From Candidatus Helarchaeota archaeon (GTDB taxonomy: Archaea; Asgardarchaeota; Lokiarchaeia; Helarchaeales; RDOG01), in NCBI GenBank assembly GCA_029838215.1, contig JALGVI010000011.1, positions 1 through 64,000 on the forward strand: 64,000 nucleotides of DNA, in the 5' to 3' direction. This document shows positions 15,632 through 56,280 of this stretch, piece by piece (within the stretch, counting starts at the first letter, position 1; every line of letters begins with the position of its first letter). The notes beneath the pieces are model-generated. The model was given only the letters and a program-made list of their open reading frames with translations. It did not search any database and was not told the DNA's origin. A program made the translations under genes and the position numbers.

Positions 15632-16585
15632 ATGGATAAACTTCGTGACATTCAAAATACAATTGCTGAATATAACGTTGCCATTAATAAAGTTGGCATC
15701 CAAAACGTAGTAAAAAGAATTCGATTAAAAAAGGACTCTAGCTCATATGATTTCTCTGGACGCCTTTCTGCCTTCATCGACCTTCCCCGAGAAAAACGTG
15801 GCATTCACATGTCAAGAAATCCCGAATCGATCGAAGAAGTGTTGAATGAGTTTCAATTTAAAAAGGCAACCTCTTTCGAAATGTTCGTGAAAGGCGTGGC
15901 AGAAACGTTATTAAAAAAACATGAATATAGCTCAAATTCTGAAGTCGCGTTGAAAGGCACTCTAATTTTGGAAATGGCTCAAGACTATGGGGGTACATAT
16001 CAAAAATCCTTAGATATTATGGTTCGAGCAGCCTCTTCACGTAGCACTCAAGACCTGAAGACCACGATCACGTTACGTGTTTCTTCATTGGGAATGAATT
16101 CGTGTCCATGTGCACAAGAGATGATTCGAGATTATTCGAAAGATATCCTTCTCAAACGAGCTGAAAACCTAAACTTGAGCGAAGAAACAATTGATAGCAT
16201 TCTTCAACTGGTTCCACTGGCAACTCACAGTCAAAGAGGACGAGGAACAATCGAAATCGAAGAATTAAAAGAAAATTCTATAGACCTACTTGAGTTAATT
16301 GATATTATTGAAGGATCAATGTCCGCACGTATCTCGGCTGATGTTTTAAAACGACCTGAAGAGGGAAAATTGGTTCGTCTTGCTCATTTTAATCCAAAAT
16401 TCGTAGAAGACAGCTTGAGGCACATGGCATTCCATCTCATCCGGAAATTCAAGCACTTGCCTGATGATACAAGAATATGCCTACAGATGGAAAATATGGA
16501 AAGTATTCATTCATATGATGCTGTTGCTACAAAAATAACGACAATTAAAGAATTAAAGGAAGAACTATTGGCTCCAAATGGGTGA
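15632..16585 (+). CDS. mptA: GTP cyclohydrolase MptA (FolE2/GCYH-IB type)
   Basis: 317 aa. Fe(II)-dependent conversion of GTP to 7,8-dihydroneopterin 2',3'-cyclic phosphate, the first step of H4MPT biosynthesis. Diagnostic stretches: VGIQNVVKRIRLK, AFIDLPREKRGIHMSRNPESIEE, the metal-site region MNSCPCAQEM and the late ATHSQRGRGTIEI. The His/Cys metal ligands of the COG1469 family are present. It overlaps the next gene by 8 bp, so translation is probably coupled. Confidence 0.93.
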   Translation: MDKLRDIQNTIAEYNVAINKVGIQNVVKRIRLKKDSSSYDFSGRLSAFIDLPREKRGIHMSRNPESIEEVLNEFQFKKATSFEMFVKGVAETLLKKHEYSSNSEVALKGTLILEMAQDYGGTYQKSLDIMVRAASSRSTQDLKTTITLRVSSLGMNSCPCAQEMIRDYSKDILLKRAENLNLSEETIDSILQLVPLATHSQRGRGTIEIEELKENSIDLLELIDIIEGSMSARISADVLKRPEEGKLVRLAHFNPKFVEDSLRHMAFHLIRKFKHLPDDTRICLQMENMESIHSYDAVATKITTIKELKEELLAPNG

Positions 16586-17612
16586 ACCAATGCCGATTTA
16601 TGCCCGTGAAGGAGATTTCATCGAAACTAATAACGATCTAATTTTCGATGTCAAGGGATTTATTCATCCTCCGGCTCACATTGTGGCCTACTTGAGATAC
16701 TATCCTGACACGCTGGGTGAAAGACATCGAAAAAATTGTCGTTATAAAAAAGTATATTCTTTAGATGAACGCTTTAAAATCTTAAAAACACAATTCCCAC
16801 AATTTATTTACGATGATCCCGCCATGGGACAACTCATTCAAGCCGTACCTCATCGGTACATTAGAAAAATATATGAGCCACATGTATATTTGGGTCGTGT
16901 TTTGAAAAAACCAAAAAACAGGTACGAGAAAGCCGTTGCCCGATTAACTCAATATATTCTTGATGAATCAGGAATTTTCCACTCTGATTTAGGTGTATCG
17001 GGATCGCCCATGGTCGGATTGAATCGTCCGGATTCTGACATTGACATTATTGTATATGGAAGTGAAAATGCAAGAAAAGTACATGATTCAATGGAACGTT
17101 TATTTAAAGATGAACAAATCCCCATTCGACCCTATAATTACCAAGAACTTCAAAAATTATATAAGTTCAAGAGTCAGGATACTCATGTTTCCTTCGAAGA
17201 TTTCGTGAAATTTGAAATCGAGAAAAAAACACAAGGAATATTCGAAGAAAAAATAGAATTTTTCATTCGAAATTTGAAAGCGTGGGATGAAATTGAAGCG
17301 AACCCAACGAATGAATACGGTTATTATAAATACCGAAACGTGGGTGAAATTGCAGTTCAGGCAAGGATCGTGAATGATCAAGAAGCCATTTTCACGCCCT
17401 GCATTTACGGCATAAAATTAATGAAAGTATTTGATGGTCCAAGCAATAAAAGTATTGAACGCGTGGTATCATACCGGGGCAGATTCACGGAAGCAAAATT
17501 AGGTAAAATAATAAATATCCGCGGAACCCTCGAAATTGTAAATGGAAAGAACGGAGAGGAATTCTATCAAATCGTGGTTGGTGCACGAAAAGAACATTAC
17601 TTGACATATTGA
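16578..17612 (+). CDS. Pol-beta-superfamily nucleotidyltransferase (copy 1)
   Basis: 344 aa. N-terminal domain with DVKGFIHPPAHIVAYLRYYPD. Then the nucleotidyltransferase core GVSGSPMVGLNRPDSDIDIIVYG, where the GS and the D-x-D metal ligands are intact. The C-terminal ~80 residues (ARIVNDQEAIFTPCIYGI..., YRGRFTEAKLGKIINIRGTLE) look like a beta-rich accessory domain. It is related to COG1665 predicted nucleotidyltransferases; substrate unknown. It overlaps mptA; an alternative ATG lies at 16590. The next gene is a diverged tandem copy. Confidence 0.78.
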   Translation: MGEPMPIYAREGDFIETNNDLIFDVKGFIHPPAHIVAYLRYYPDTLGERHRKNCRYKKVYSLDERFKILKTQFPQFIYDDPAMGQLIQAVPHRYIRKIYEPHVYLGRVLKKPKNRYEKAVARLTQYILDESGIFHSDLGVSGSPMVGLNRPDSDIDIIVYGSENARKVHDSMERLFKDEQIPIRPYNYQELQKLYKFKSQDTHVSFEDFVKFEIEKKTQGIFEEKIEFFIRNLKAWDEIEANPTNEYGYYKYRNVGEIAVQARIVNDQEAIFTPCIYGIKLMKVFDGPSNKSIERVVSYRGRFTEAKLGKIINIRGTLEIVNGKNGEEFYQIVVGARKEHYLTY

Positions 17613-17630
17613 TTCAAATATGGTGAAGCT

Positions 17631-18698
17631 ATGGCAAGACAAACTGATGTTAATCTGTTGTCATCTCCTTTGGATCATGACTTCATTCTCACTTTGGAAA
17701 ACTATTTCTTCACTGTTGTGGGGTATCAACATCCGCCTGACCGCATTTTCGCCTATTTGAAATACGTTCCTGCACCTGAAGGAAAATGGCGAGTTGATAA
17801 ACAACCCCTTGAAAGAGTGCTTCCTCATTATTCCGCAGCAATGGTTCATGAGACCTTCCAAATATTAGAAAAACAACACCCTGAATACATATTTGATTGC
17901 CCTATTAACAACATAACTATGACAGCAGTCCCGAAATCATCTATTAAGGAATACTTCAAACCGCAACAAGCCATCTCAAAATTAAAACAAGAATCAAAAC
18001 TTGATTTACTTCAAAGAAAAACTCTTGATCTCATTGACGTGTTGACTGATATGGGTGGAATTCAGCACAAATCTTTCGGTGTTACCGGGTCCATTCTCCT
18101 AGACATTCACGATCCAAGCTTCTCTGACATTGATCTTACCATTCATGGTCATTCAAATTCAATGATCATCAAAGATGTCGTGACGAACCTTTATGAAGCA
18201 GATTCTCGGTTCGCAAGGATGAGCATTCAAGAAGCAAGCGAATGGAAAGCGCGTAAAGTAAAGCAATTTAATCTCACGTCAGAAAATGTAGAAATTCTAT
18301 ACAGGCGAAAATGGAATATGGGTTACTTTACGAATACGAAATTTTCGGTTCACCCGATTCATCTAGAAAAAGAAATAAAAGACTCCTACGGGTCGAAGAG
18401 ATTCATTCCCAAAGGTGAAATCACTATAAAGGCTTGTATTGTGGATGATCAAGAAGCCATGTACATCCCTTGCATCTATGAAATAGACGAAGTCCACGTG
18501 ATTGAAGGAAAAAAAGTGAAAAACATTAGAGAAATCATATCTTTTGAAGGATTGTACTGTTCTGTCGGAAAAGTTGGTGAAAAAATTACATGTAGGGGAA
18601 AATTAGAAGAAGTAATTGTTCCCGAACACGATAACTATTATCGAATCGTACTAGGTTCTTTTTCAACAACTCAGGACTTCTTTCATCCTCAAGAATAG
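17631..18698 (+). CDS. Pol-beta-superfamily nucleotidyltransferase (copy 2)
   Basis: 355 aa, collinear with the preceding gene. The same opening (FTVVGYQHPPDRIFAYLKYVP), core (GVTGSILLDIHDPSFSDIDL, with GS and D-x-D kept) and C-terminal domain (CIVDDQEAMYIPCIYEI..., FEGLYCSVGKVGEKITCRG) are all present. It is an old duplication: spacing is conserved but identity is modest. Both copies keep the catalytic acidic pair, so neither is an obvious pseudo-enzyme. They may act as a heterodimer. It is the last gene of the pterin-island transcript. Confidence 0.78.
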   Translation: MARQTDVNLLSSPLDHDFILTLENYFFTVVGYQHPPDRIFAYLKYVPAPEGKWRVDKQPLERVLPHYSAAMVHETFQILEKQHPEYIFDCPINNITMTAVPKSSIKEYFKPQQAISKLKQESKLDLLQRKTLDLIDVLTDMGGIQHKSFGVTGSILLDIHDPSFSDIDLTIHGHSNSMIIKDVVTNLYEADSRFARMSIQEASEWKARKVKQFNLTSENVEILYRRKWNMGYFTNTKFSVHPIHLEKEIKDSYGSKRFIPKGEITIKACIVDDQEAMYIPCIYEIDEVHVIEGKKVKNIREIISFEGLYCSVGKVGEKITCRGKLEEVIVPEHDNYYRIVLGSFSTTQDFFHPQE

Positions 18699-18829: not shown

Positions 18830-19228
18830 ATGAGCGAGTATGATGAACTTGCAACGAAACTAAGCGAAATTTCTGAAAAATTGGCAACGGTAGCAGATCT
18901 AATCACGACGTTGGTCAATGCAATAAAAACCATGGGACAACACTTGGGTGATAAAATGACTCAACTTACCGAGATGGTGAAAACCTATGGTATAAAAGCA
19001 ACAGAAACAGGTTCTGGCGATTTTGACCAAATACAAAGTGCTATCTCCAAAATATTTGAAAAAATTGATACATTAAACACGATTACTGGACAAAAATCCC
19101 TCCAAGATTCTGGTACTGCCTTGAATGAGTTATTGGACATGCTTGATACTGTTGCATTTGATCCTGAAGAAATTAAAATAAAAATAAATGAGATCACGAC
19201 ATTTATTGAAGAAATTAAGAAGAAATGA
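18830..19228 (+). CDS. Small coiled-coil protein A of the coiled-coil island
   Basis: 132 aa from the ATG at 18830. The frame also opens at TTG 18818, but a GAGG motif at 18811 is too close to that codon. It is nearly all heptad-patterned helix: LATKLSEISEKLATVADLITTLVNAIKTMG, a short TGSGDF break, then a second helix pair. It is not recognised as a named family. A TATA-like TTTATAAG lies ~75 bp upstream. It is paired with the next gene (12-bp gap). Confidence 0.7.
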   Translation: MSEYDELATKLSEISEKLATVADLITTLVNAIKTMGQHLGDKMTQLTEMVKTYGIKATETGSGDFDQIQSAISKIFEKIDTLNTITGQKSLQDSGTALNELLDMLDTVAFDPEEIKIKINEITTFIEEIKKK

Positions 19229-19240
19229 AGGTGAAAACAC

Positions 19241-19888
19241 GTGGAAAAATCTGGTATCTCTTTTATCACGGCTGTCGCCAATGATATCTACGAAAAAGTC
19301 AATGGTGTAATAGAGTCATTCGAAAAAGTTGGAGAAATCCTACCCAACATAATGCAGGAAATAAATGATAATATGACAGCACTATCATCTTCAATTGGTC
19401 AGATGATCGAAGAAACCAATCAAAATCGTAATCTCACGAAAGATATGTTTTCTGAATTGACTGAAAAAGTCATAAATCAAATACAACAAATTCAAGACAA
19501 AAAAGAAGCTGAACTTGATGAAAAAGGATTAAAAGAAACCGTGCAAGTCTTGCAAAACGTTTCAAAAAACCTGAATGACAAGGTGTTTGATATTCAATAC
19601 GCTTTGATTATTGCAGGGATTCACACGATTGTTGACGTTCTAAAAGGATTAATTCAAGCACAACCCACACAACAAGTTCAGCCCGCTTCAGAAGAATCAA
19701 TTGTATTTTCCGATAAAGCTCCAATTCCTGTCAGCGCTTCAGAAACTGGAAAATTAGCTCCGAAAAAACCTGCAAAGCGAAAGAAAGGACGAAGAGCACC
19801 GGGTAAACCAACGCAAAAAACCGTGGGCTCTCATGAGGACGAACTTGAAAAAATGAGACGTAAAAAAAGGCTATTTGGTAACTACTAG
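19241..19888 (+). CDS. Coiled-coil protein B with basic linker and FG-type tail
   Basis: 215 aa, GTG start at 19241. Residues ~10-140 are heptad-rich helix. Residues ~145-170 are Pro/Gln/Ser linker. A strongly basic stretch follows (APKKPAKRKKGRRAPGKP), then EDELEKMRRKKRLFGNY at the C-terminus. The final LFG is shared in style with two other proteins of this island. The basic patch may bind nucleic acid or an acidic surface. Family not recognised. Confidence 0.7.
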   Translation: MEKSGISFITAVANDIYEKVNGVIESFEKVGEILPNIMQEINDNMTALSSSIGQMIEETNQNRNLTKDMFSELTEKVINQIQQIQDKKEAELDEKGLKETVQVLQNVSKNLNDKVFDIQYALIIAGIHTIVDVLKGLIQAQPTQQVQPASEESIVFSDKAPIPVSASETGKLAPKKPAKRKKGRRAPGKPTQKTVGSHEDELEKMRRKKRLFGNY

Positions 19889-19899
19889 TGATTCTAAAT

Positions 19900-20418
19900 T
19901 CATCCGAATAAATCTGATGGCTTTAATAACGTATCATTTGTTTTATCCTTTTTTCCTGAAGTTTGGAGACTATCTAATTCTTCTTGTGGCGAGACGGAGC
20001 CTTGTGAAACGGGGACTCCTTCGCTTCCTATTGTAGGAATGGGTGCCGCAAGAGGCTCTTCTTTTGTAGTAACTCCTTGGACTGTTTTCGGAGATGAAGT
20101 CACTGCTGGGTGAGGGACTGGAGCAATGGCAACTTGGGTCATCAACTCGCGGACATCCTGTAAAACTCGATTGAGTTCCATTACCTGCATTTGTTTTTGT
20201 GTTTGCTCCATTAGAGTCGAGAACCGGGCCTCTAACTCATTCACTCTTGGGGAAACTGGACCTCCTCCCAAAGGTTTTTTTACGAGTTCTTTAATGGCAT
20301 TTTGATTTTCTGTAATCAATTCGGAGTTTTTCTTGATCTCATCAGCCATTGAGGTAACTTTTGTCAATATTTCTTTTAACACTCGAAGAATTTCTGATTC
20401 CATGACTTTATCTTCCAT
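19900..20418 (-). CDS. Coiled-coil protein C with PTS-rich linker and KPSDLFG tail
   Basis: 172 aa. Two helical stretches (~5-50 and ~65-100) are followed by ~65 residues of Pro/Ser/Thr/Gly linker and the terminal peptide LLKPSDLFG. It is the last gene of a seven-gene minus-strand run that begins at 26178. It converges on protein B, 11 bp apart. Not a recognised family; the layout (oligomerising coil, flexible linker, short terminal motif) suggests an adaptor. Confidence 0.7.
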   Translation of the reverse strand: MEDKVMESEILRVLKEILTKVTSMADEIKKNSELITENQNAIKELVKKPLGGGPVSPRVNELEARFSTLMEQTQKQMQVMELNRVLQDVRELMTQVAIAPVPHPAVTSSPKTVQGVTTKEEPLAAPIPTIGSEGVPVSQGSVSPQEELDSLQTSGKKDKTNDTLLKPSDLFG

Positions 20419-20451
20419 GCCATCGACTCTCCATGATCATTTAACAAGTCA

Positions 20452-21987
20452 CTAAAATTTTTTATATGATTCCAACTTATAAAAATGCTGTTTCTTTTTA
20501 AAAAATTGCATTTTCTTCAAGCGTTGAAATCGCTGTTTGCGGTCTTCGTGAGATGTTCCATCTTGAGTTCGATATATCCACGCATTTAATTCTGGTGGCT
20601 CAATAGAGATGTATTGCACTAAAGGATTATTAAACATGGCTGAACCCTTCTGTAACGTGAATACACTTACGAGAAAATCCTGAATTTCTCTATCATGTGT
20701 TTGTAGAAATTCTAGTGTTTGCGAAAAATCCTCTAAAGTTTCTCCCGGAAATCCAACCATGACGTAGACACCAACTCGAACTCCCATTTCATCCATTTTC
20801 TTGATTATTCTTGAAGCATCATCGAGATCAATGAGCTTATTCATGAGCTTCAATACTCGATGGCTACCCGACTCTAATCCAAAATAACAATATTTTAATC
20901 CATCACGTGAATAATTAACTATCTTTTCATCCGACCAACCCCGAAATTCCGCATTTCCTCCCCATTCTATTGAAATTCCGGTACTTTTCAAGATGTCAAG
21001 TGCCTTTCTAAAAGTCGTCGTAGAATTAAACGAATTATCGGCAAGTGCAATTTCGTTAATCCCCAAGACTGAGTTATAATATTCGATTTCCCTGACTACG
21101 GATGTTGGTTTTTTCACTCTAAAAGGACCCCAGATGCTGTTATCGTTACAAAAAACGCAATTTGATGGACATCCCTTCGAGCAAAAAATTCTTAAACTGG
21201 AAACATTTCGGAAGTCTTGGTTGACCAAATCCAAGGAATTGTATGCTGGAATCGGCAACTCATCTAAGTTTAAAGCAGGAGGACTTTCAGTTTTAATTAA
21301 CGAGCCGTTTGAAAAAAAAGTAATCCCGGGAGCACCTTGAATCTTTAACTTCTCCTTTTTCAGTCGCAAAATATGAAATAATGGTAGTTCTCCTTCATTA
21401 TGATGTATCACTGCATCAATTGAATTCAAACGCGCATAAAAATCACCACGATAGATGTTGCTCGCCTCAGGTCCCCCTAAAATTATTTTGATGTCGGAAT
21501 TTCTCCTCTTCAAACAATTTGCAACATAAATCGAAGCGACCGCATTTCCAACAACAATCGAAAAACCAAATAGATCCGTATCAAATTTCTCCAAGTATTC
21601 AACGTACCTGTCAAGAATGCGAATGGTCTTGTCTTTCTGGTCTTCAAACTTTGTAAAAATCGTTTGGTACAGTTTCGAACAGACTGGACCCAAAGATTCG
21701 ATAAATAATTGTACTTGTTCTCTGGAAAGACCTAACAATTCACGAAAAATAAACCAATTGGCATAACCCCAATTCCCAAACTTGAGCTCCTTCTGATCCT
21801 GAAATTCAGTTGGCAACTTGAAATTCTTGAGATGACCATGATAAAAATCAAAACTACAATCCACGCAATGCAAGCGGAATCCCTTACTTGAAAGAAAGCT
21901 CTGTAAAGAAGCCAACGAAAATGATGGAATGAGGCTATTATATGCCGGCAAGGACGTTAAAACAATATCATATTCCATTTTTGGCAC
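20452..21987 (-). CDS. B12-binding-domain radical SAM enzyme
   Basis: 511 aa. The N-terminal ~200 residues match the cobalamin-binding Rossmann fold (DIVLTSLPAYNSLIPSFSLASLQSFL; KIILGGPEASNIYRGDF). The radical SAM barrel starts with FCSKGCPSNCVFCND, where C-x3-C-x2-C is intact. Later parts include YCYFGLESGSHRVLKLMNK and MVGFPGETLEDFSQTL, typical of B12-radical SAM enzymes. Substrate unknown: these enzymes do methylations or ring rearrangements on lipids, cofactors or peptides. It is embedded between coiled-coil genes with 9- and 33-bp gaps, so it is probably part of the same unit. The start could also be at the fourth codon (MEYDIV). Confidence 0.9.
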   Translation of the reverse strand: MPKMEYDIVLTSLPAYNSLIPSFSLASLQSFLSSKGFRLHCVDCSFDFYHGHLKNFKLPTEFQDQKELKFGNWGYANWFIFRELLGLSREQVQLFIESLGPVCSKLYQTIFTKFEDQKDKTIRILDRYVEYLEKFDTDLFGFSIVVGNAVASIYVANCLKRRNSDIKIILGGPEASNIYRGDFYARLNSIDAVIHHNEGELPLFHILRLKKEKLKIQGAPGITFFSNGSLIKTESPPALNLDELPIPAYNSLDLVNQDFRNVSSLRIFCSKGCPSNCVFCNDNSIWGPFRVKKPTSVVREIEYYNSVLGINEIALADNSFNSTTTFRKALDILKSTGISIEWGGNAEFRGWSDEKIVNYSRDGLKYCYFGLESGSHRVLKLMNKLIDLDDASRIIKKMDEMGVRVGVYVMVGFPGETLEDFSQTLEFLQTHDREIQDFLVSVFTLQKGSAMFNNPLVQYISIEPPELNAWIYRTQDGTSHEDRKQRFQRLKKMQFFKKKQHFYKLESYKKF

Positions 21988-21995
21988 GGATGTTC

Positions 21996-22322
21996 TTATT
22001 CTCTCTTAATCTTATCTGCTACAGAGAGAATACGCTTCAATGCCGTTAATAAATCTAAGTACCAAAAATTCTCATTTACATTCTCGATGGAATTTAAAAG
22101 AAGCTTTGTATTTTCCCTGTAAGCCTTTAGACCACCTGCTTCCCCAAATCTCTGACCGAGCTGGGATACAGAATCATTGAGAGCCTCCATTGATTTGCTC
22201 AATTTGTTCAATGATTCCACGACGTTATTATTTACTTCATCCAGAGCATTCTGGATCTTGTCCATTCTACCAAAAACATCGTTTAATGCTTCAGTGATAA
22301 AAGGTAAGAGACTTCTACTCAT
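21996..22322 (-). CDS. Small coiled-coil protein E of the coiled-coil island
   Basis: 108 aa, mostly helix with heptads (VFGRMDKIQNALDEVNNNVVESLNKLSKSMEAL), a short Gly-rich break, then a second helical pair. It resembles proteins A and F in size and pattern, though low-complexity helix makes homology uncertain. Gaps of 8 and 12 bp to its neighbours support one transcript. Confidence 0.68.
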   Translation of the reverse strand: MSRSLLPFITEALNDVFGRMDKIQNALDEVNNNVVESLNKLSKSMEALNDSVSQLGQRFGEAGGLKAYRENTKLLLNSIENVNENFWYLDLLTALKRILSVADKIKRE

Positions 22323-22334
22323 TTTATCATCCCA

Positions 22335-22676
22335 TTATTCCGTGTTTTTTTCACTCTGTATTACTTGAACCGTTTCTATGAGCTGATTTAATAATTCTGC
22401 TACTTTTTTCTCTTCGAATTCTGCTTCGAGCCGTTGGCTGATTTTTATAATGCTTTGTTTTGCGGTCTCAATTTCTTGCGTGTGAAAAATGATCTCAAAT
22501 GTTTTAATTAATCGATCAACGCGTCGATCAAATCCAACTAATAAATCATCCATGTTCTCGTTAAACTTTTCAAAAGTGTCTCGTAATAATTGAATTTGTT
22601 CATGTGTCTGATCTAATTTATTTGAAAGCTGCAAAAATAGGTTTTGAATGGCATGAAATTGAGGATCATCACTCAT
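22335..22676 (-). CDS. Small coiled-coil protein F of the coiled-coil island
   Basis: 113 aa, continuous amphipathic helix (NLFLQLSNKLDQTHEQIQLL; VDRLIKTFEIIF) with a C-terminal helix rich in Glu/Lys. No tail motif. Not recognised. It is part of the tightly packed minus-strand run. Confidence 0.68.
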   Translation of the reverse strand: MSDDPQFHAIQNLFLQLSNKLDQTHEQIQLLRDTFEKFNENMDDLLVGFDRRVDRLIKTFEIIFHTQEIETAKQSIIKISQRLEAEFEEKKVAELLNQLIETVQVIQSEKNTE

Positions 22677-22694
22677 GTTAATTACCTCGTGAAT

Positions 22695-23285
22695 TCAACT
22701 TCCGAAGAACGATGAAGGACGAAGGTTGTGATCCTCCCCATCTTCTTCAGCTTGCTGAGGTGGAACGGCTGGAGCCGTTGAAACTGGTGCGGTACCTTCG
22801 GTGCTACTAGCAGCAGGTGCCGAGGTTGTTTGGGTTGAGCTGGTTGAAGCTGGTGCGGTCTGTGAAGTAGAAGATGCAACGCGTTCAACCACCTTTTCAA
22901 CGACCCTTGGAGCCACAGGCATTGATAAATTCTCAATTCTCCTCACTAACCCCTGAATCGTCAAGATTTGAATGCTTTTTTGCAATTTGTTCAAGATATG
23001 ATCGATGGCGATTTCTATTTCATTTAAATCCTGCAATCCTAATGACTCGATCTCTTCGGTCAGAACCTGTTGCATCTCTGGAATGCTTCTTTGGCTCAAG
23101 ATTGCAAATTCACTGTCGAACTTCTTTTCTAAAGTATCAATTTTTTGCAAGATATTCTTAAAAGTAATGGTCTGGTCTTCAACTTTACGCTCTATTCTTT
23201 GTAACGCCTTTACTGCATCTTCGAGAAGACCTGTTAACATGTTTATGAGCACGGTGTCGCCTTGGGACAACTCAAACATCTCCAT
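22695..23285 (-). CDS. Coiled-coil protein G with Ala/Ser/Thr/Pro linker and RPSSFFGS tail
   Basis: 196 aa. Residues ~5-115 are heptad-rich helix (LLEDAVKALQRIERKVEDQTI; MQQVLTEEIESLGLQDLNEIEIAI). A ~65-residue Ala/Ser/Thr/Pro linker follows, then an acidic patch and the terminal LRPSSFFGS. The architecture is the same as protein C. The low-complexity linker is real coding sequence, because the other two frames do not sustain it past a few dozen codons. Confidence 0.7.
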   Translation of the reverse strand: MEMFELSQGDTVLINMLTGLLEDAVKALQRIERKVEDQTITFKNILQKIDTLEKKFDSEFAILSQRSIPEMQQVLTEEIESLGLQDLNEIEIAIDHILNKLQKSIQILTIQGLVRRIENLSMPVAPRVVEKVVERVASSTSQTAPASTSSTQTTSAPAASSTEGTAPVSTAPAVPPQQAEEDGEDHNLRPSSFFGS

Positions 23286-23431
23286 TTCTTGTGATGATAG
23301 AATTCAAAAATATGAATCTCATCATTACCAATAGCATCAGCTGAAAACACTGCTTTATATTCTTTTTTATTATGGTTTCAGAATTCTTAAGAGCCTTCAC
23401 GAATTTTTATTAAATTTTTAAAAAGATCTTG

Positions 23432-24487
23432 TTATAGAGGATGTCCTTGAACCCATGCTTCAGATAGGAGAGTCAAATAAAATTCAATTTGTTTATATTC
23501 CGTGATGTAAAAACCTACTGGTCCTGCTTTTTCCGAGTTTGTTGCAATTATTAAACCCTCGCGGTCAAACTCCAAGCCCCATCTGTCTTTTCTAGAGAAA
23601 TTACGAAAAGTAAAATTTGATCGTCCCTTGAAACTATTAAGAATGTCTTGGTCTTCTTCCGTTTTCTCAATAGAAGTTGCAACTCGAACGTTTACCCTGT
23701 CGCTTAGAATTGATAAATTTAAACCCTCGAGATCTTTTATCGTTGGAATGATTAAAAGAACGCGCATTCTAGCATTTCCTAATGCTTCGTTCATTGATTC
23801 CAGAATTTGTTCTCTACCCTGAATGTATTTGAAATCTTTCTTTTCTGAAAGCTCCAATTTTTCTCGTAGAGCATTTACCGTTTCATTTAATTGCTTGATT
23901 TCATCCTTTAAATCCAAAACTTGATCCGTTTTTTCGAGAATCGCGGATTTATTGCTCTCAAGTTTATCTTTTAAATTTTCAATTAAATCCTTCAAGGAAC
24001 CGTTCTTTTCTTCTAGCGAATTGACCTGATTTTTTAATTCATTTACCTGTTCCGTGAGACTTGCTATCTCTTCTTTTTGTTTTTTAATGGTCCTAGTCTG
24101 TCGTCCTACCTGTTCTTCATACTCCTTTTTAATGCTTGTTTCGATCAGTTCCTTGTTTTTCTCAATCTTTATGTTAGCATCTGCAAGTTCTTTTTCCTTT
24201 TGTTGATATTCTTCTTCGATTTTTTTAATTTTTTCTTCCAGTCCTCTGACAATTTCCTCTAATTCCTGATTTTTACTCTTATAGGTTGATAAATCTTCCA
24301 TTAGTCCATTGATTACTTTTTTCTTATCTTCGATTTCGCTCTTGAATATCTGAACTTGTTCGTCTGAAATTGCCAGATTTTGTTTAGAATTATTTAATTC
24401 TTCATCTAATTGCTTTTCAATGTCGTGTATGATTTGTTCTTGTTCTTCAACCGTGCGTTTCAACACGCCTCTATCTGTTTCTTCCAA
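23432..24487 (-). CDS. Long coiled-coil protein H with C-terminal PLD/TrmB-sensor-like domain
   Basis: 351 aa. Residues 1-~215 form an uninterrupted coiled coil of ~30 heptads, rich in Glu/Lys. The last ~130 residues are globular: GREQILESMNEALGNARMRVLLIIPT, NVRVATSIEK, then FDREGLIIATNSEKAGPVGFYITE. This order (helix, beta strand, displaced D/E-x-G strand, late helix) resembles the PLD-like sensor domain at the C-terminus of archaeal TrmB regulators. The catalytic HKD motif is not seen, so it is probably a binding domain. No DNA-binding domain is fused. Confidence 0.65.
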   Translation of the reverse strand: MEETDRGVLKRTVEEQEQIIHDIEKQLDEELNNSKQNLAISDEQVQIFKSEIEDKKKVINGLMEDLSTYKSKNQELEEIVRGLEEKIKKIEEEYQQKEKELADANIKIEKNKELIETSIKKEYEEQVGRQTRTIKKQKEEIASLTEQVNELKNQVNSLEEKNGSLKDLIENLKDKLESNKSAILEKTDQVLDLKDEIKQLNETVNALREKLELSEKKDFKYIQGREQILESMNEALGNARMRVLLIIPTIKDLEGLNLSILSDRVNVRVATSIEKTEEDQDILNSFKGRSNFTFRNFSRKDRWGLEFDREGLIIATNSEKAGPVGFYITEYKQIEFYLTLLSEAWVQGHPL

Positions 24488-24516
24488 TTTATGACCTCCT
24501 TATTTTTAAACTTGCA

Positions 24517-26178
24517 CTATTCTGTTGTTTTTTGGTGGAACTGGCTATTTGCCATCCAAGTAGATTTGATCTCAACTATTTTTGATTTTTCTAAAATATC
24601 TGTCGCATCAAGCATTTCAAATCCACGCATCATTCTGTACTTAGCAATATCTTTGTTTTGTAAGAGGTTCTTCTTTTCACAATTAAATTCAAAATTACTC
24701 CTTATTTCAAAATTCGTATCTAATGCTTTTTCTAATCGATCTTTTAATGAAGATTGGAATGCGGCATTCATGAATTCAAAAGGAATCCATTGATCTGCCG
24801 ATGCCTTTTTTGAAAGAAGAATGATAGGAGGAACGATGAAAATTTTTTCGTCATCATCCGATGTTTCTACTTCAGCAACATAAAGTGGGATGAATTTTTT
24901 AGCCAATGGTACTACCATACCTATTTGAGAACCTAATACAGACCATCTCATCAAATAATTTTTTTCATTAATGCAATTCTTAATGACATCATCGATGAGC
25001 TTCTTAATAGACTCCGTTCTCTTTTCTATATCATCCTGACTTGAAGCAAAATCCTTCAGTTTCATGTCTTTTTCCACGAATAATTTCGGCAAATCTCCCC
25101 CAACTTTTTCCAATGATTCACGATATTTTTTATCTATTTCTTCTTCTTTAACGTGAACTTCATCTTCCAACTTAACTAATTCGTCTTCAATTTGCTTGAA
25201 TCCTTCCTCTATTGAAAAAAGTATCTTCTTTATCTCTTCACCATTTTTAAACTCGTCTATCATGTTTTTTACTCGTTCCAACACGTATTCTGGCTCGGCA
25301 TCTTCTTGTTCCAGACTCTCTACATTTAAAACGTATTTTCGCAAATATGAAGCAAGTAACCGATGTTTTTCATGGATCTTCAAAGTTAAAGCAGTCCTTC
25401 GCTTCGATAACCACTCCGTGAGGTTAAACATCCCATCCGATTTGGATTTCTGTAATTTTGCCATCTGGGCTTTAACCTCGTCTTGTTTTCGATATATCTC
25501 TGATGTTATCCTTTTATCAAGATTCTTTATTTTACGCTTGATGCTGGAGAGCCAATTATCCGTCGTTTCTTCAATTAGTCGCAACAAGTTTTTCCAATTC
25601 TGCATGTTTCCATCAATTTGTTTTAGTATTGTTGCGTATTCTCCTGCAATATCCAATGCCTGATCTGATGTGTGAACGCAATCTAAATCCGCCAGCATTG
25701 AAGACACGTTACTTTCTTCATGTTTTAGGAGTGTAGCGATTCCTTTTAATAAATCTGGTTCTATAATGCCTTTAATAAAAATCTCTCGCCTTGAAATTCC
25801 TTTAATTAGTGCCTCGCATTCATCTAAAACATTTTTAAAGTCCTCTGTCGATGAAGTCTTGGCATCCGTGTCTCTCATAAGCCTGCTTATTTTAGATTGA
25901 ATCGTTCCAGGAGCGTCGGTGATCTCAAACCTAAGAGAAAAGAAATTCAATCCATCAATGGCAATGTATCTTTCAGGTCCAACTTGAACGAGGAAAAGCG
26001 GCCACAAAGATTTTGAAAAGAAGTGATATCGTGCATTTTTTAAATTAGCAAGATATTTGAAATATTCCATTATACTAAACATGCTTGCAAGTTCCAAATC
26101 CAATTTGTTTAGAGGAACGTGATCATGTTCTTTTATGATGCTTGCTCCAAGAGTTGTTTCTTCTTCTGTCAAACCCAC
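24517..26178 (-). CDS. Large coiled-coil protein I with N- and C-terminal globular domains
   Basis: 553 aa. The N-terminal ~110 residues are globular (NARYHFFSKSLWPLFLVQVGPERYIAIDGL). Residues ~130-400 are helical with several coils. The last ~130 residues are a second globular domain (GMVVPLAKKFIPLYVAEVE; KIFIVPPIILLSKKAS). It is the first gene of the seven-gene minus-strand run and probably its scaffold. No family recognised. It is divergent from gene J with 232 bp between. Confidence 0.68.
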   Translation of the reverse strand: MGLTEEETTLGASIIKEHDHVPLNKLDLELASMFSIMEYFKYLANLKNARYHFFSKSLWPLFLVQVGPERYIAIDGLNFFSLRFEITDAPGTIQSKISRLMRDTDAKTSSTEDFKNVLDECEALIKGISRREIFIKGIIEPDLLKGIATLLKHEESNVSSMLADLDCVHTSDQALDIAGEYATILKQIDGNMQNWKNLLRLIEETTDNWLSSIKRKIKNLDKRITSEIYRKQDEVKAQMAKLQKSKSDGMFNLTEWLSKRRTALTLKIHEKHRLLASYLRKYVLNVESLEQEDAEPEYVLERVKNMIDEFKNGEEIKKILFSIEEGFKQIEDELVKLEDEVHVKEEEIDKKYRESLEKVGGDLPKLFVEKDMKLKDFASSQDDIEKRTESIKKLIDDVIKNCINEKNYLMRWSVLGSQIGMVVPLAKKFIPLYVAEVETSDDDEKIFIVPPIILLSKKASADQWIPFEFMNAAFQSSLKDRLEKALDTNFEIRSNFEFNCEKKNLLQNKDIAKYRMMRGFEMLDATDILEKSKIVEIKSTWMANSQFHQKTTE

Positions 26179-26410
26179 GATATTTCACCAAAGACCTATT
26201 CAAATAAAAAATCCTACATACTTTTTCTCTCACGTATCATTCTTGAAAAATTTTATGTTCTACACGATTCGACAAAATTCGGAAATCGATAATAAAAACT
26301 TATTTTTCCGATTCATTATAAGTTTTCTTCAAAAAAACATTCAAATACATGAAAAGCATATCATGTTCCATCATTTCCGTATCAAAATTTAATCGAGGCG
26401 ACCTGACCAG

Positions 26411-28822
26411 ATGGTTTCTGGAATTAAAAGGAGTAGCTTGGCAGCAGAAAGTGCAAGACAATTCACGACTCCCGATCTTTTAACACTTAAATTTAGACGG
26501 GAACAAGATTTCGAAAAAATCCTTGAATTGACCGATGAAGAAAGCGATTTGCTTACATATATTTTATCCGCTTGTGCTATTCATCTCTATCATCACATGG
26601 ACATCAAAACCCTGGAAATGAAAGATGAACAATTATTAACCTACGAAGCCGAACATAAATTCGACCGGCTTCAAAAAAAAGCATTACTCGATGAATTAAG
26701 CCAGATCATTGGAAAAAATGTCATTCAAGAACTTGAACTGTTCGAAAAAAAGACGCGCGTGTTGAAAGATATTCTTAACGTTACGATGCAGTTAAAAAAC
26801 ACTAATAATCCTGTTGAAAAAGAAGAATTGGAGCAGGAAAGGGGCAAGCTATTGCATCAGTTTGTTTTATCATTGTTTAGAAAATACCCCGACTATTTCT
26901 TTTTCGACCAAGTCGGAGACCTCTTTGGATTGACCATTCAAACTCGAATGGAAATGATACAACTTGCATCCGAATTGAAAATCACCCAAATGGACATTAG
27001 TGAAGAATTCAAACGTGAATACTCCGAAACGTTGGTTGAACTTGGAACTTTCACGCACTTGCGGGAATTCTTCACGAAAAAATGGGAACTTAAAGGTGCA
27101 ATTCGGCAATTAGAAACACAAAAGGTCACATTCCGGCGAATTGAAAATGAATTAATGAATAAAATAATTGAATCATTCCCATTCAGCCAGAAAGGACAAA
27201 AGGCAAGTATTGATGCATTACATTTAAAACTGAAAATCATTGATGAATTTAAAAAGCACGTATCAACTCCGCGATCATTTAGAAACCTTGAAAAAGACAT
27301 CTCAAAGTTGGTCCGTTTTGAGATTTATAAGCAAGCACTGGAAAGTCCTCAGAGTTTTGTTGATTTTTTTTCAAGGCTTCTTGACTTGCCGTTCAATGAC
27401 GTGATGGAATTCTTTCGCAAGGTTCGAATCTCTAACATTCCTGCATTTTGCCAGATGTTAGCAGTTCCCGTGCAAATCATTTCCAAAAAATTAAGTGAAA
27501 TGAATATTAGGGATATGGATCTTACTCGTCTTTCTGAAAAAGGCGGTTTAAATATTGCAAGACAAAAATTTGAGGAAAAGAAAAGCCAACGACACGAAGC
27601 CATTATCTCGATGTCTTTTGAAGAGTTCGTGAAAACTGGCGAACAATATCCTGACTTGAGACAATTCTCCCGCGAGTTCCTTTCGGAAATCACGCTCAGT
27701 CTTCGGGACTTGCAGGACCTCTTGGAAAAAGAAAAAATACTTAAAAACGAAATATTGATACCGTTTCAGGTCGTTAACGTGGATAATCTACGTTTAGCAC
27801 TATCTTCCATCCCTATTCTAACTAATTTGGAGAAAGAAATCTTCTATCACGTGCTCAAGAACATCTTGCGGCACATATCTCGGCTCATCGAACAATATGA
27901 GAAGCTGAAAAAAGACAAGGAAATCTTCCTGCTTGCGTTAAAAAAAATTCCTCAATTAACTGAATCCGAAAATTGGATACAAGTAAAGCTTGAAGATTTG
28001 ATCATCAAGAAAATAATGGCACGACAAAAAGAATTCCACGATTTATTTCGCTTTAACAATTCTCATCTCATAAATGGGTTCTTATGGGCTCGACTTTCTA
28101 ATTCTTCCTTTCAGGACGCATCTAAAATTATCAAGGAAACTCCAAGTCCTGTATATCATGGCCTCTATCAATTCCCACTCACTTATGAAGAAATACCTCC
28201 TGTTTCCTTTGCTTCTGCATACGACCTTACAATGCGTTTGCAAGCATCCCTTAAATTAAAAGAAACCAAGATCATTGAAGCAAGGGCTAAATCAGTCGCG
28301 AAAGAGAAACCAATGACTAAAATTGAAGATATTGAAACATTTAGTTGGATTGAAAAACGGATAAAAACAGCAATAATGCGAGTAGGAAAAATATCCCCAA
28401 CAGATCTATACTGGACTGATGAGGACACGAAAAAATTTGGGAGTAACTTCCTCTTACACGTGCAAGTAATGGATGCAAAAAAAATATGCCCCGAGTGTGG
28501 TGCAATCCAGGTAGATAACTGCCCGAAGCATCAAAACGGTTCCTTGATCCGACCGAATAAGATCCAAGCAATGGCTTCATATTATCAATTTGCATCTGAA
28601 AAAATCGGCTCGAAAGAATTCTCAACAAACCGTCAAGAAGTTGAAGAAATAACCAAGGAAGTCATGAAAGAACGACTCGGTCGGGACCCAATTGCAGATG
28701 AATACAAACAGCTTCTCGAAGGTGAAATCCGCCTGATCGGCGAAAAACTGGCAGAAAAGGTGGGACAAAAATTCAATAAAACATTATATAAAAAATATCG
28801 AAAAACAAAATTAGGTAAATAA
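26411..28822 (+). CDS. Large helical protein J with C-terminal zinc ribbon
   Basis: 803 aa, almost entirely helical. There is a clear zinc knuckle at about residues 693-705 (CPECGAIQVDNCPKH), and a last ~100 residues that look like a compact basic helical domain (RLGRDPIADEYKQLL). Not recognised. It is transcribed away from gene I and runs tail-to-tail into the MglA-like GTPase gene (10 bp apart). The size and length of helix suggest a structural or docking role. Confidence 0.68.
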   Translation: MVSGIKRSSLAAESARQFTTPDLLTLKFRREQDFEKILELTDEESDLLTYILSACAIHLYHHMDIKTLEMKDEQLLTYEAEHKFDRLQKKALLDELSQIIGKNVIQELELFEKKTRVLKDILNVTMQLKNTNNPVEKEELEQERGKLLHQFVLSLFRKYPDYFFFDQVGDLFGLTIQTRMEMIQLASELKITQMDISEEFKREYSETLVELGTFTHLREFFTKKWELKGAIRQLETQKVTFRRIENELMNKIIESFPFSQKGQKASIDALHLKLKIIDEFKKHVSTPRSFRNLEKDISKLVRFEIYKQALESPQSFVDFFSRLLDLPFNDVMEFFRKVRISNIPAFCQMLAVPVQIISKKLSEMNIRDMDLTRLSEKGGLNIARQKFEEKKSQRHEAIISMSFEEFVKTGEQYPDLRQFSREFLSEITLSLRDLQDLLEKEKILKNEILIPFQVVNVDNLRLALSSIPILTNLEKEIFYHVLKNILRHISRLIEQYEKLKKDKEIFLLALKKIPQLTESENWIQVKLEDLIIKKIMARQKEFHDLFRFNNSHLINGFLWARLSNSSFQDASKIIKETPSPVYHGLYQFPLTYEEIPPVSFASAYDLTMRLQASLKLKETKIIEARAKSVAKEKPMTKIEDIETFSWIEKRIKTAIMRVGKISPTDLYWTDEDTKKFGSNFLLHVQVMDAKKICPECGAIQVDNCPKHQNGSLIRPNKIQAMASYYQFASEKIGSKEFSTNRQEVEEITKEVMKERLGRDPIADEYKQLLEGEIRLIGEKLAEKVGQKFNKTLYKKYRKTKLGK

Positions 28823-28832
28823 AATAAATGGA

Positions 28833-29450
28833 TTAGCTTTTTTTTGCTGCCTTCATCCGCAAGAAGAACTTGAGAACCGCGTCTCTTGCGACTTGCTGAA
28901 AACTTCTTTTAATATTCTTTCCCTGTATGGCAACTGTCTCATAAATCTGTAACGGCATCTCAATTCCGTGAGGATTTATGATCGTTCCCAATCCGCGCTC
29001 TTTAAAATATTGTTCAATCTCTGTCCTAGGGGTCAAGTTTGGTAAATCCATCTTGTTAATTTGAACCAAAAATGGAATTGACTTTCCAAGCTTATTTCCC
29101 AAGTGCCCAATTAATTCATCTAATGACCATAAATTTTCCTCAAGTTGCTCCTTCTGCGCATCCCACACGAAAATAATTCCATCGGCTCCATTTAGAATTG
29201 TCTTACGCTGGAATTTATGACGTCTTTGCCCTGCACAAGTATAAACTTGCATGGTCACTCCTCCAACTCCCGCCGTCATACGATCAAAGAACAAAGTTCG
29301 ACCTGTCGGATCAACTATGCTTTGCATCTTACCAGTTGCCATCCCTTCTTTATCAAACATCCATTTAACAGCGGTTGTCTTGCCCGACAAAGAAGAACCC
29401 CAATATACTATTTTGAAGACTAATTTACCGTCAGCACCTCGGCTTGGCAT
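28833..29450 (-). CDS. MglA/Arf-like small GTPase
   Basis: 205 aa. G1 loop GSSLSGKTT at residues 18-26. A switch I region DPTGRTLFFDRM matches the TLFFD signature of MglA-type GTPases. The G3 region is VYTCAGQRRHKFQRKTIL (AGQ instead of D-x-x-G, as in the MglA/Rag style). G4 is NKMD. ADGIIFVWDAQ also fits MglA. Bacterial MglA sets cell polarity with a roadblock partner, and Asgard genomes carry many small GTPases. No roadblock gene is adjacent; the neighbours are the coiled-coil island and, in the other direction, iorB. Confidence 0.87.
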   Translation of the reverse strand: MPSRGADGKLVFKIVYWGSSLSGKTTAVKWMFDKEGMATGKMQSIVDPTGRTLFFDRMTAGVGGVTMQVYTCAGQRRHKFQRKTILNGADGIIFVWDAQKEQLEENLWSLDELIGHLGNKLGKSIPFLVQINKMDLPNLTPRTEIEQYFKERGLGTIINPHGIEMPLQIYETVAIQGKNIKRSFQQVARDAVLKFFLRMKAAKKS

Positions 29451-46148: not shown

Positions 46149-47549
46149 TTGCCAGATTTAAATGCTGATAAGATCCCCGTTCATGTCGTGTTACTGGGTC
46201 ATATTGATCACGGTAAAACGAAGCTTGCAAGGCAGCTAAGCGACGTGATTTCAACTGCGGGATTGGACAAGCATCCACAGTCCAAAGAACGGGGAATTAC
46301 CATTGACTTGGGATTTACGGCATTTACATTGAAGAATTACTTGGTCACCTTGATTGACGCACCGGGACATGCTGATTTAATTCGAAGCGTGGTTGCGGCA
46401 TCAACCATAGCAGATGCAGCTATATTGGTAGTCGCTGCAAATGAAGGTCCGAAGATCCAAACTGGGGAACATGTCTTGATATTGGATGGGTTCAAGATTA
46501 AAAACGTGATTGTTGCACTAACAAAAATTGATTTGATTCGACCAGAAGAAATTCCAACAAGGATCAAGCAGGTTCGCAGCATTTTGTCAGGGACATCGCT
46601 TGTTAATGTTCCAATCATTCCTGTTTCAGGTCTGACTGGTGATGGAATTCAGGCATTAAAAGAAGCATTGGTAAATATTTTATCCCCTCCAGAACGGCTT
46701 CTTGACGGGCAATTAAAGATGCCGGTCGATCATGCATTTTCTGTAAAGGGTTCAGGAACGGTAATGACAGGCACCATACATCGCGGACGAGTTTCCATTG
46801 GTGATTTAATAGAAATTTATCCGGATCGGCAGGGAGGACGAGTCAGGTCCATTCAAGTCTTCAAGCAATCCCGAGAAAAAGCTAAAGCAGGAGACAGGGT
46901 CGGCATTGCCGTGGCGGGCTTGGATCCCAACCGAATTTCGCGTGGTTGTTATATGGCTACTCCTGGATCTTTAAGAATCGTGCAAGAATTGGAGATCAAG
47001 GCTAAGATGAATGGTTTTTATAAAGGCGGTCTCCATCCAAAAATGATGGTTCATTTAACAATTGGAATGCCAACAGTCTCTGGAACCGTTTATCCATACG
47101 TGAATGAAGATGGAAAAAAGATCATTAAGGAGAAAGTTGAACCTGGTGAAGAATTTAATGCTTTAATAAGACTTGGCGAGAAAATCACTGCGGAAGTAGG
47201 AGACCCCGTATTGATTTCAAGATTGGACCTACCGGTAACGAGCCTCCGAATCTTAGGAAGCGGGAACGTTATAAATATGGATATCGAGGCCATTACTTTC
47301 TTTCGTGAAAAAATTAAACAAGGAATGGTACGTGGGACCCATCAGCGAGGATACATCTTGGATCAAATTGCACGAAGTAAGATTGGTGCGGAGAAGTTCC
47401 TGAATTTGCAGGTGAAAACATATTCAGGAATAAAGGGGACGATTACCGAAACATTCGGAACGAAGGGATCCGTGATCGCAAAAATGGAACGTGATGTACA
47501 AGAAGGAGACGTTGTATTCGTGAGGATTTTAAGGAAGTATAAACTATGA
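46149..47549 (+). CDS. selB: Selenocysteine-specific elongation factor (EFsec/SelB)
   Basis: 466 aa, TTG start with a GAGAGG site 8 nt upstream. Delivers Sec-tRNA to UGA. G1 GHIDHGKT (residues 17-24), DAPGH (70-74) and TKID (125-128) are intact. KERGITIDLGF is the SelB-type switch; EF-Tu and aEF1A instead have a different -GITIN- context. Domains II-III (VDHAFSVKGSGTVMTGTIHRG...) and a short C-terminal domain follow, in the archaeal/eukaryal style and without the long bacterial winged-helix tail. It overlaps the next gene by ATGA. Confidence 0.92.
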   Translation: MPDLNADKIPVHVVLLGHIDHGKTKLARQLSDVISTAGLDKHPQSKERGITIDLGFTAFTLKNYLVTLIDAPGHADLIRSVVAASTIADAAILVVAANEGPKIQTGEHVLILDGFKIKNVIVALTKIDLIRPEEIPTRIKQVRSILSGTSLVNVPIIPVSGLTGDGIQALKEALVNILSPPERLLDGQLKMPVDHAFSVKGSGTVMTGTIHRGRVSIGDLIEIYPDRQGGRVRSIQVFKQSREKAKAGDRVGIAVAGLDPNRISRGCYMATPGSLRIVQELEIKAKMNGFYKGGLHPKMMVHLTIGMPTVSGTVYPYVNEDGKKIIKEKVEPGEEFNALIRLGEKITAEVGDPVLISRLDLPVTSLRILGSGNVINMDIEAITFFREKIKQGMVRGTHQRGYILDQIARSKIGAEKFLNLQVKTYSGIKGTITETFGTKGSVIAKMERDVQEGDVVFVRILRKYKL

Positions 47550-55133: not shown

Positions 55134-55348
55134 ACATATTCACGCACGCATTGTCTAGGTTACTTTCGAACCCGGCACGCTCGGGTGTTTGGGGGCCGCA
55201 CGCTGAACATCTCCTTTCGTTGATGCGTACACGCCGGCTCCATCAAACTCCTCTTTTAGGAGAACCCTCGTCTGCTGCAATCCGTTGCTGTCACCAGCCC
55301 CGGACGACCCATGCCTCGCAGCAGAATGGACGGCTCGTTTCAGGTTTC

Positions 55349-55379
<31 letters not shown>

Positions 55380-55505
55380 GATTGCAGCGTGGCTGCCCGG
55401 CATTGCCCTATCGGACAACCGGTAGACTAGTGGCTACCGCACGCCGTTCCTCTCGTACTGAGCGTCCGTTACCCTCAGCCATCCAACACCCCCAGTAGAT
55501 AGAAT

Positions 55506-55548
<43 letters not shown>

Positions 55549-55636
55549 TTAATGGGCGTACAGCCCCACCCTTGGCAGCTGCTTCACCGCCAGGATAGGA
55601 AGAGCCGACATCGAGGAAGCAAGCCGCGGGGTCGAT

Positions 55637-55732
55637 TTACTCGAACCCCCCATTTCAGCTCTTCTGAACGTAAGCACATCGCATGTGAGAGAAGACTCAT
55701 GTTAAGTTTGAAAAGTGTCTGTGGGGAGCTCT
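55637..55732 (-). other. 96-nt BHB intron in 23S rRNA (helix 89 loop)
   Basis: RNA sense: central helix GCTC with GAGT; 3-nt bulges ACA and AAA; then a 9-bp inner helix (GAGCTCCCC with GGGGGGTTC, including G-U pairs). Cutting after the second bulge base of each restores AAGAGCTCAC-ATCGACC, which aligns without gaps to the E. coli helix 89 sequence AAGAGUUCAUAUCGAC. No protein is encoded. Confidence 0.85.
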
Positions 55733-56280
55733 GTGAGCTCTTGCCCGCGACGACTCTGTTACCCCCGGGGTAATTTTTTTGTCGCCACCTACTCCCATGA
55801 ATGGAGATTAGATGGATCGCTAGGCCACGCTTTCGCGTCGGGATTCATCATTGGGCAGAATCCCATCAGGCCAGCTTATGCCCTTGCACTCTACGAAGCG
55901 TTTCTGTCGCTTCTGAGCTGACCATTGGGCCTCTTTGATATCTTTTCAAAGAGGTGCCGCCCCAGCCAAACTGCCCACCTGAAGGTGTCCTGAAGCACAT
56001 GGCTCCAGTCAGTGATACAACGTACCGAGGCCAGTATTCCACGGTTGCTGGTTCGTGACCCGAAAGCCACAACCCATGAGCTCCTGGCTATGCTATGCGC
56101 GACACACCGCACCACAACATCAGGCTGCAGTAAAACTCCACGGGGTCTTCTCTTCCCACTGGGGGATCCCGGACTGTTCGCCGGGTAGTGGGTTCACCGG
56201 GTAGAAGGTAGGGACAGTGGGGACCACGTTGATCCGTTCATGCACGTCGGTACTTGTCCGACAAGGCATTTGGCTACCTT

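What the first reader, a model, noticed from the sequence alone, without database searches (positions are those of the whole stretch)
18830..29450. Island of coiled-coil proteins with a B12-radical SAM enzyme and an MglA-like GTPase
Eight proteins made mostly of coiled coil or helix (A, B, C, E-J) surround one cobalamin/SAM enzyme, in two converging transcripts plus one divergent gene, ending at an MglA-type GTPase. Tight gaps (8-34 bp in most of the minus run) say they work together. I recognise no described system with this content. A polar or filamentous assembly controlled by a GTPase, or an organising scaffold for a modified lipid or protein, would fit.
Basis: inference. Interest (0 to 1): 0.75.

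Follow-up and report, generated by a model that had tools for sequence, protein, structure and literature searches.

The report
Asgard coiled-coil trio linked to GTPases
In Asgard archaea, the group closest to eukaryotes, this stretch encodes two copies of an undescribed set of three coiled-coil proteins that is inherited as a unit, has copies lying beside small GTPase switch genes, and carries a nearly unchanging recruitment-like tail, so it is probably a scaffold steered by a GTPase.

Summary
The core is a three-protein coiled-coil family, AF, BE and CG, present here twice: A-B-C and F-E-G. C and G are clear paralogs (hhalign 98.4%), B and E likely (95.6%), A and F weaker (93.8%). All four sampled Helarchaeota also carry a third trio elsewhere, within about 1 kb of an Arf- or Ras-type GTPase. 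Other Lokiarchaeia have one trio (AF-BE adjacent, CG apart). Other Asgard families keep the window's A->B-><-C layout. CG proteins end in an almost invariant tail, HLLKPSDFFG (24 of 26). D (radical SAM) and H were seen only in Helarchaeota. I, J and the MglA-like GTPase K are older Asgard genes, scattered in related orders; J travels with a different partner and was not found in two of four helarchaeal genomes. Most likely the trio is a heteromeric coiled-coil scaffold or effector steered by small GTPases. Family relations and linkage are shown; assembly, GTPase binding and function are inferred. No Pfam, NCBIfam or PDB family tested covers the trio or J; none in Pfam or PDB covers I.

The parts
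   Evidence: homologs border the A-B-C trio in Hel_GB_B (8e-29, L130) and lie near D-E-F-G in the same genome (6e-23, L050)
18830..19228 (+). A: AF-family coiled-coil subunit of trio 1 (132 aa)
   Evidence: ORF; orthologs; A~F 93.8%
19241..19888 (+). B: BE-family coiled-coil subunit of trio 1 (215 aa), Pro-rich linker, ends RRKKRLFGNY
   Evidence: ORF; B~E 95.6%
19900..20418 (-). C: CG-family coiled-coil subunit of trio 1 (172 aa), ends LLKPSDLFG
   Evidence: ORF; C~G 98.4%
20452..21987 (-). D: radical SAM enzyme, probably B12-dependent (511 aa)
   Evidence: PF04055 1.1e-18 over cut-off, PF02310 below cut-off; CxxxCxxC conserved
21996..22322 (-). E: BE-family coiled-coil subunit of trio 2 (108 aa)
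22335..22676 (-). F: AF-family coiled-coil subunit of trio 2 (113 aa)
22695..23285 (-). G: CG-family coiled-coil subunit of trio 2 (196 aa), Pro-rich linker, ends LRPSSFFGS
23432..24487 (-). H: coiled coil plus conserved C-terminal domain (351 aa)
   Evidence: no Pfam or PDB family for the C-terminal domain
24517..26178 (-). I: alpha/beta domain split by a long coiled coil (553 aa), single copy in most Lokiarchaeia
26411..28822 (+). J: large all-helical protein (803 aa); partner of N in other Asgards; probably incidental here
28833..29450 (-). K: MglA-like small GTPase (205 aa)
   Evidence: 7e-24 to MglA; PF00025 over cut-off; GSSLSGKTT and NKMD motifs by eye

Best explanation
The island encodes two paralogous copies of a three-subunit coiled-coil set (AF+BE+CG) that works as a scaffold or effector of small GTPases. 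Proposed mechanism: AF and BE are short all-helical subunits that bundle with the N-terminal helices of CG. CG then presents, through a Pro-rich acidic flexible linker, a conserved C-terminal tip (HLLKPSDFFG) that recruits one common partner. A small GTPase, K for this locus and an Arf- or Ras-type GTPase for the third trio, sets where or when the scaffold is active. H and I act as larger coiled-coil linkers, and D methylates or otherwise modifies a component or a membrane lipid as a lineage-specific addition. Shown: gene families, paralogy, conservation, linkage, the tail. Inferred: complex formation, GTPase binding, recruitment by the tail, roles of H, I and D.
For: Gene order A-K is kept in LW55_61, K-I-H-G-F-E-D-[SPFH]-C in Hel_GB_A, and I-H-G-F-E-D with a separate A/B/C locus in Hel_GB_B. 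Paralogy C~G 98.4%, B~E 95.6%, A~F 93.8% against unmatched pairs 70.9, 68 and 2.4. Three trios in each of four helarchaeal genomes: F-E-G (87%) and the third trio (93%) form clades and A-B-C plus the third trio join at 99%; the A-B-C clade itself has only 64%. Loki-type genomes carry AF-BE side by side and one CG apart; two other Asgard families carry the trio in one place, in two of three loci as AF->BE-><-CG as in the window. The third trio lies within about 1 kb of an Arf GTPase (window's genome, Hel_GB_A, Hel_GB_B) or of a different, Ras-type GTPase (LW55_61) in 4 of 4 genomes; chance is about 4-5% per locus at one GTPase per 51-71 kb, though the four loci are orthologous, so not four independent events. 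Tail in 24 of 26 CG proteins over several lineages; among pattern hits in five genomes no other long ORF ended with it.
Against: No complex was modelled; coiled coils can give spurious similarity, and A~F is only modestly above background. K's tie to the trio is seen only in Helarchaeota: elsewhere K orthologs lie alone, and in Hel_GB_B K is on another contig. No GTPase was recognised beside the Loki-type or other-lineage trios; their conserved neighbours look roadblock- or longin-like only by eye (best test E 0.27; none). The third trio, the one nearest GTPases, lacks the tail in the CG proteins checked, so tail and GTPase link may be separate features. D was seen only in Helarchaeota.
Confidence: 0.48

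Rival explanations
1. The trio is a structural cytoskeletal or membrane-organising assembly (filament, cortex, or an ESCRT-I-stalk/CdvA-like recruiter) with no direct GTPase control; GTPases are near it because Asgard genomes hold so many.
For: Coiled coil plus linker plus C-terminal peptide recalls CdvA (own knowledge). In a Loki-type genome a Vps28 homolog (PF03997, 8.5e-8) lies a few genes downstream of AF-BE on the same strand. Hel_GB_A carries an SPFH/Band_7 protein between D and C. GTPases are dense, 49-105 per genome.
Against: No ESCRT, CdvA or filament profile reaches its cut-off for any subunit. The third trio is flanked by a GTPase in four of four genomes, with two different GTPase types.
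Confidence: 0.25
2. The module serves D: the coiled-coil proteins are a scaffold or substrate set for a B12/radical-SAM modification of a protein or lipid.
For: D is in the middle of the F-E-G run in all four Helarchaeota with 8-33 bp gaps in the window; its nearest named relatives modify peptides or small molecules (RiPP, phosphinate, MCR enzymes, all below cut-off; OxsB, TokK, CysS).
Against: The trio is far more widespread than D: Loki-type and other Asgard trios have no D ortholog nearby; the A-B-C and third trios in Hel_GB_B lie away from D.
Confidence: 0.1
3. Gene clustering in Helarchaeota is a by-product of operon drift; A-K do not form one functional unit, and the coiled-coil proteins serve unrelated tasks.
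For: I, J, K and CG lie at separate loci in related orders; J pairs with N; A/B/C split from the rest in Hel_GB_B.
Against: Order is kept between genera whose proteins are only about 30-40% identical, which drift would have erased, and the trio keeps together in three independent contexts.
Confidence: 0.17

Closest known systems
MglA polarity GTPase system of Myxococcus and Thermus (MglA, MglB, RomR/RomX)
   Same: K is a sequence relative of MglA (about 1e-23); the system works through GTPase-positioned scaffold proteins (PMC9481161)
   Different: No MglB or Rom homolog recognised in the cluster; no search related the trio to RomR/RomX; polarity untested
BORC/BLOC-1 and Ragulator with Arl8/Rag GTPases (eukaryotes)
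   Same: Several short coiled-coil subunits working with Arf-like GTPases (own knowledge); resemblance in architecture only
   Different: No BORC/BLOC-1 Pfam family reaches its cut-off for any subunit; the trio has three subunit families, not eight
CdvA and ESCRT-I stalk
   Same: Coiled coil with a C-terminal recruiting peptide (own knowledge); a Vps28 homolog lies near AF-BE in a Loki-type genome
   Different: No ESCRT or CdvA profile match; tail sequence unlike any motif I know
Class B (cobalamin-dependent) radical SAM enzymes, for D
   Same: Radical_SAM over cut-off, CxxxCxxC, OxsB/TokK/CysS among nearest solved structures
   Different: Fails every named NCBIfam subfamily cut-off; B12 domain below Pfam cut-off

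Membership tests
MglA-type small GTPase (K) | sequence similarity to MglA over the G domain | tested here: met
   phmmer 7e-24 to 3t12, about 1e-23 to M. xanthus MglA, Rab7 next at 4e-7
MglA-type small GTPase (K) | P-loop GxxxxGK[ST] and NKxD | tested here: met
   GSSLSGKTT and NKMD in K (sequence printed)
MglA-MglB system | MglB roadblock GAP encoded with MglA | tested here: not met
   no roadblock match over cut-off among the cluster proteins
Class B radical SAM (D) | Radical_SAM domain with CxxxCxxC | tested here: met
   68.4 against 29.5 bits; cysteines invariant in three orthologs
Class B radical SAM (D) | B12-binding domain | tested here: inconclusive
   PF02310 1.6e-5, 25.1 against cut-off 32.1
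Named B12-rSAM enzymes (ApyD, PhpK, MCR Gln methyltransferase and others) | score over the curated family cut-off | tested here: not met
   best 119.9 against 750 bits
BORC / BLOC-1 | Pfam family of any subunit over cut-off | tested here: not met
   only weak matches such as BORCS6 15.2 against 35 bits
BORC / BLOC-1 | assembled multi-subunit coiled-coil complex recruiting an Arf-like GTPase | not testable with these tools
   multimer prediction and binding assays not available
ESCRT / CdvA | Vps28, steadiness-box, winged-helix or CdvA domain | tested here: not met
   no such Pfam match over cut-off in the cluster proteins
SMC / Rad50-type ATPases (H, I) | ATPase head domains and score over cut-off | tested here: not met
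   H 35.0 against 729 bits, coiled coil only; I has no PDB fold match at E <= 0.001
AF-BE-CG trio (defined here) | AF, BE and CG in one genome; CG with terminal [KR]PSx[FL]F tail | tested here: met
   the third helarchaeal trio lacks the tail in the CG proteins checked
Roadblock/longin partner next to trios | adjacent protein matches a roadblock or longin profile | tested here: inconclusive
   PF03259 16.6 against 23 bits at L138; PDB Robl_LC7 E 0.27 for the other-lineage neighbour; no match for the longin-like family

The most novel reading that the evidence does not exclude
AF, BE and CG form a previously undescribed Asgard heteromeric coiled-coil scaffold or tether, controlled by Arf/Ras/MglA-type small GTPases and recruiting its target through the HLLKPSDFFG tip: an archaeal GTPase-effector machine comparable in kind to eukaryotic coiled-coil tether and BORC-like complexes.
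Probability: 0.33. Interest if true: 0.82.

Novelty: categorically new. Interest (0 to 1): 0.66.

Why it matters
Asgard genomes hold dozens of small GTPases (49-105 Arf-profile matches in these four genomes), yet their downstream effectors are largely unknown, and gene layout rarely pairs a GTPase with a regulator (PMC10933270, on MK-D1). A small, conserved three-protein set that recurs next to GTPases and carries an almost invariant recruitment-like tail gives a concrete candidate effector family. It is short, has no clear membrane segment, and can be tested by co-expression with named GTPases, which makes the question of what Asgard GTPases do directly approachable.

Tried and rejected
Fold search of I and J against the PDB gave no hit at E <= 0.001; coiled-coil-dominated hits (SMC arms, pore toxins) were discarded. 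PDB sequence searches with I, CG and BE returned coiled-coil or designed bundles and nothing that looked like a true relative, and with J nothing meaningful. The weak Pfam matches (COG6_N, NPV_P10, Baculo_PEP_C, TelA, Filament, OmpH) are all below cut-off and typical of coiled-coil bias. J as a core part was rejected: not found in Hel_GB_A and Hel_GB_B, and coupled to N elsewhere. Looking for other proteins ending in the KPSDFF tail found none besides CG among the hits read from five genomes; hit numbers were about those of the reversed pattern. Two D-like rSAM proteins near I in Loki genomes are distant relatives, not orthologs. The tail is not a PIP box (wrong spacing, by eye). Roadblock and longin identity of trio neighbours could not be confirmed. 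The apparent break-up of D in LW55_61 was mostly my ORF caller; the frame is open apart from one shift near the N-terminus. Sigma-70-type promoter matches were no more than in shuffles.
Full report
What is there. The window comes from a Helarchaeota-like Asgard archaeon: relatives of G in named genomes are Hel_GB_A, Hel_GB_B and LW55_61, all Candidatus Helarchaeota. Eleven ORFs A-K occupy 18,830-29,450 in the stated orientation, with gaps of 8-33 bp except G-H (146) and I-J (232). Heptad periodicity exceeds shuffles for A, B, C, E, F, G, H and I but not J; the test is crude, since the globular D and K also score. Pfam and NCBIfam assign only D (Radical_SAM, weak B12) and K (Arf/Gtr1) over cut-off (J; I was scanned with Pfam only).

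Conservation. The whole run A-K recurs in LW55_61 (L031). Hel_GB_A has K-I-H-G-F-E-D, an SPFH/Band_7 gene, then C (L046). Hel_GB_B has I-H-G-F-E-D on one contig end and C, B, A at another place (L050, L130). Outside the order the genes part company: I in 57 of 60 relatives, J in 71 of 83 class genomes, K orthologs and a CG gene (69 of 83) occur at separate loci. I and J reach further into the phylum (81 and 89 of 145 genomes).

The trio. Profile comparison shows C and G to be paralogs (98.4%), with the same kind of tail; B and E match (95.6%) and A and F match (93.8%), while the mismatched pairs A-E, B-F and C-F give 70.9, 68 and 2.4. So the island contains two copies of one three-protein set. 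With combined profiles a third copy appears in each of the four Helarchaeota (L181, L182, L137, L138), an AF-BE pair in Loki-type genomes (24 of 26 genomes searched have BE matches), and complete trios in two further Asgard families (L186; L187, L189), in two of the three loci in the window's A->B-><-C layout. A concatenated AF+BE tree supports the F-E-G clade (87%), the third-trio clade (93%) and the union of A-B-C with the third trio (99%); the A-B-C clade alone has 64%. The tree rests on 271 columns of short coiled coil, so deeper order is tentative.

The tail. 24 of 26 CG proteins examined, across both helarchaeal in-cluster copies, Loki-type genomes and three further Asgard families, end in [KRQ]PSx[FLI][FL] within the last 16 residues, usually HLLKPSDFFG after an acidic stretch; the two exceptions are third-trio proteins, and the other two third-trio CG proteins lack it as well by eye. 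The window's C, not in that count, has it too (LLKPSDLFG). The linker before it is not conserved. Among hits of the DNA pattern in five genomes, the only long ORFs ending with it were CG genes. This is the pattern expected of a recruitment peptide; that it binds something is inference.

GTPase linkage. The third trio lies within about 1 kb of an Arf-type GTPase in the window's own genome, Hel_GB_A and Hel_GB_B, and directly next to a different, Ras-type GTPase in LW55_61. With one GTPase per 51-71 kb the chance per locus is about 4-5%; the loci are orthologous, so this is conservation plus one swap, not four independent draws. In Loki-type genomes (f4 and two f5 loci) BE is followed by a conserved protein of about 290-300 aa whose N-terminal part is related (1.5e-9, 3.5e-8) to small proteins lying beside the third-trio GTPases of two Helarchaeota; in the other lineage a conserved 222-235 aa protein sits beside AF, in one case across a transposase gene. 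These look longin- and roadblock-like to me, but tests were weak or negative. In the window the only GTPase of the cluster is K.

Other members. I: a good model (pLDDT 88) shows an alpha/beta domain split by a long coiled coil, without a significant PDB match. J: all-helical, without a PDB match, and elsewhere immediately downstream of N, a 770-930 aa protein; J and N are both found in the window's genome and LW55_61, and neither was found in Hel_GB_A, Hel_GB_B or G004, so J's presence here is probably incidental. H: coiled coil with a conserved C-terminal domain that no library names. D: intact CxxxCxxC, 37-42% identical to the proteins of two other Helarchaeota, next to F-E-G in all four, with one frame shift in LW55_61; substrate unknown.

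Mechanism and standing. I propose a heteromeric coiled-coil scaffold or effector of small GTPases with a recruiting tip, duplicated in Helarchaeota and there combined with larger coiled-coil proteins and a radical-SAM enzyme. It works like GTPase-steered scaffolds (MglA system, BORC/Arl8), but fails the membership tests I could run for both as systems. I found no paper in the open library that describes it, which does not exclude subscription literature or COG tables in supplements. I rate it categorically new because no tested family covers the core; the functional claim stays at about one in two.

Noticed in passing
window 55169-58635 (-): Complete archaeal 23S rRNA gene, about 480 bases longer than the Rfam model (3,467 against 2,987), with no tRNA found in the window; suggests an expanded LSU rRNA as I recall for other Asgards.
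   Followed up: partly
window 46149-48865 (+): A SelB-like elongation factor followed by a SepSecS-like protein (by eye); a similar SepSecS-like gene lies near the AF-BE pair in Loki-type genomes, e.g. L180:11528-12901.
   Followed up: no
L098, L193, L196, L198, L199, L201: N and J form a conserved, mostly overlapping or abutting two-gene pair of large proteins in several Asgard families; no Pfam relative for either.
   Followed up: partly
window 16578-18698 (+): Two adjacent paralogous nucleotidyltransferase-like proteins (5e-41 to each other); homologs of the second lie beside or near trio genes in Hel_GB_B.
   Followed up: partly
L046:6029-6955: An SPFH/Band_7 protein inserted between D and C in Hel_GB_A.
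   Followed up: no
L185:4127-4756: A Vps28 (ESCRT-I) homolog a few genes downstream of the AF-BE pair on the same strand in a Loki-type genome.
   Followed up: no
L127:9594-10271 and L126:9466-10251: Further G-like proteins in Hel_GB_B and LW55_61 with a different, mutually similar C-terminal domain in place of the tail.
   Followed up: no
L137:1708-3372: A Rab-like GTPase fused to what looks like a CHAT/caspase-like domain, about 6 kb from the third trio in Hel_GB_A (by eye).
   Followed up: no
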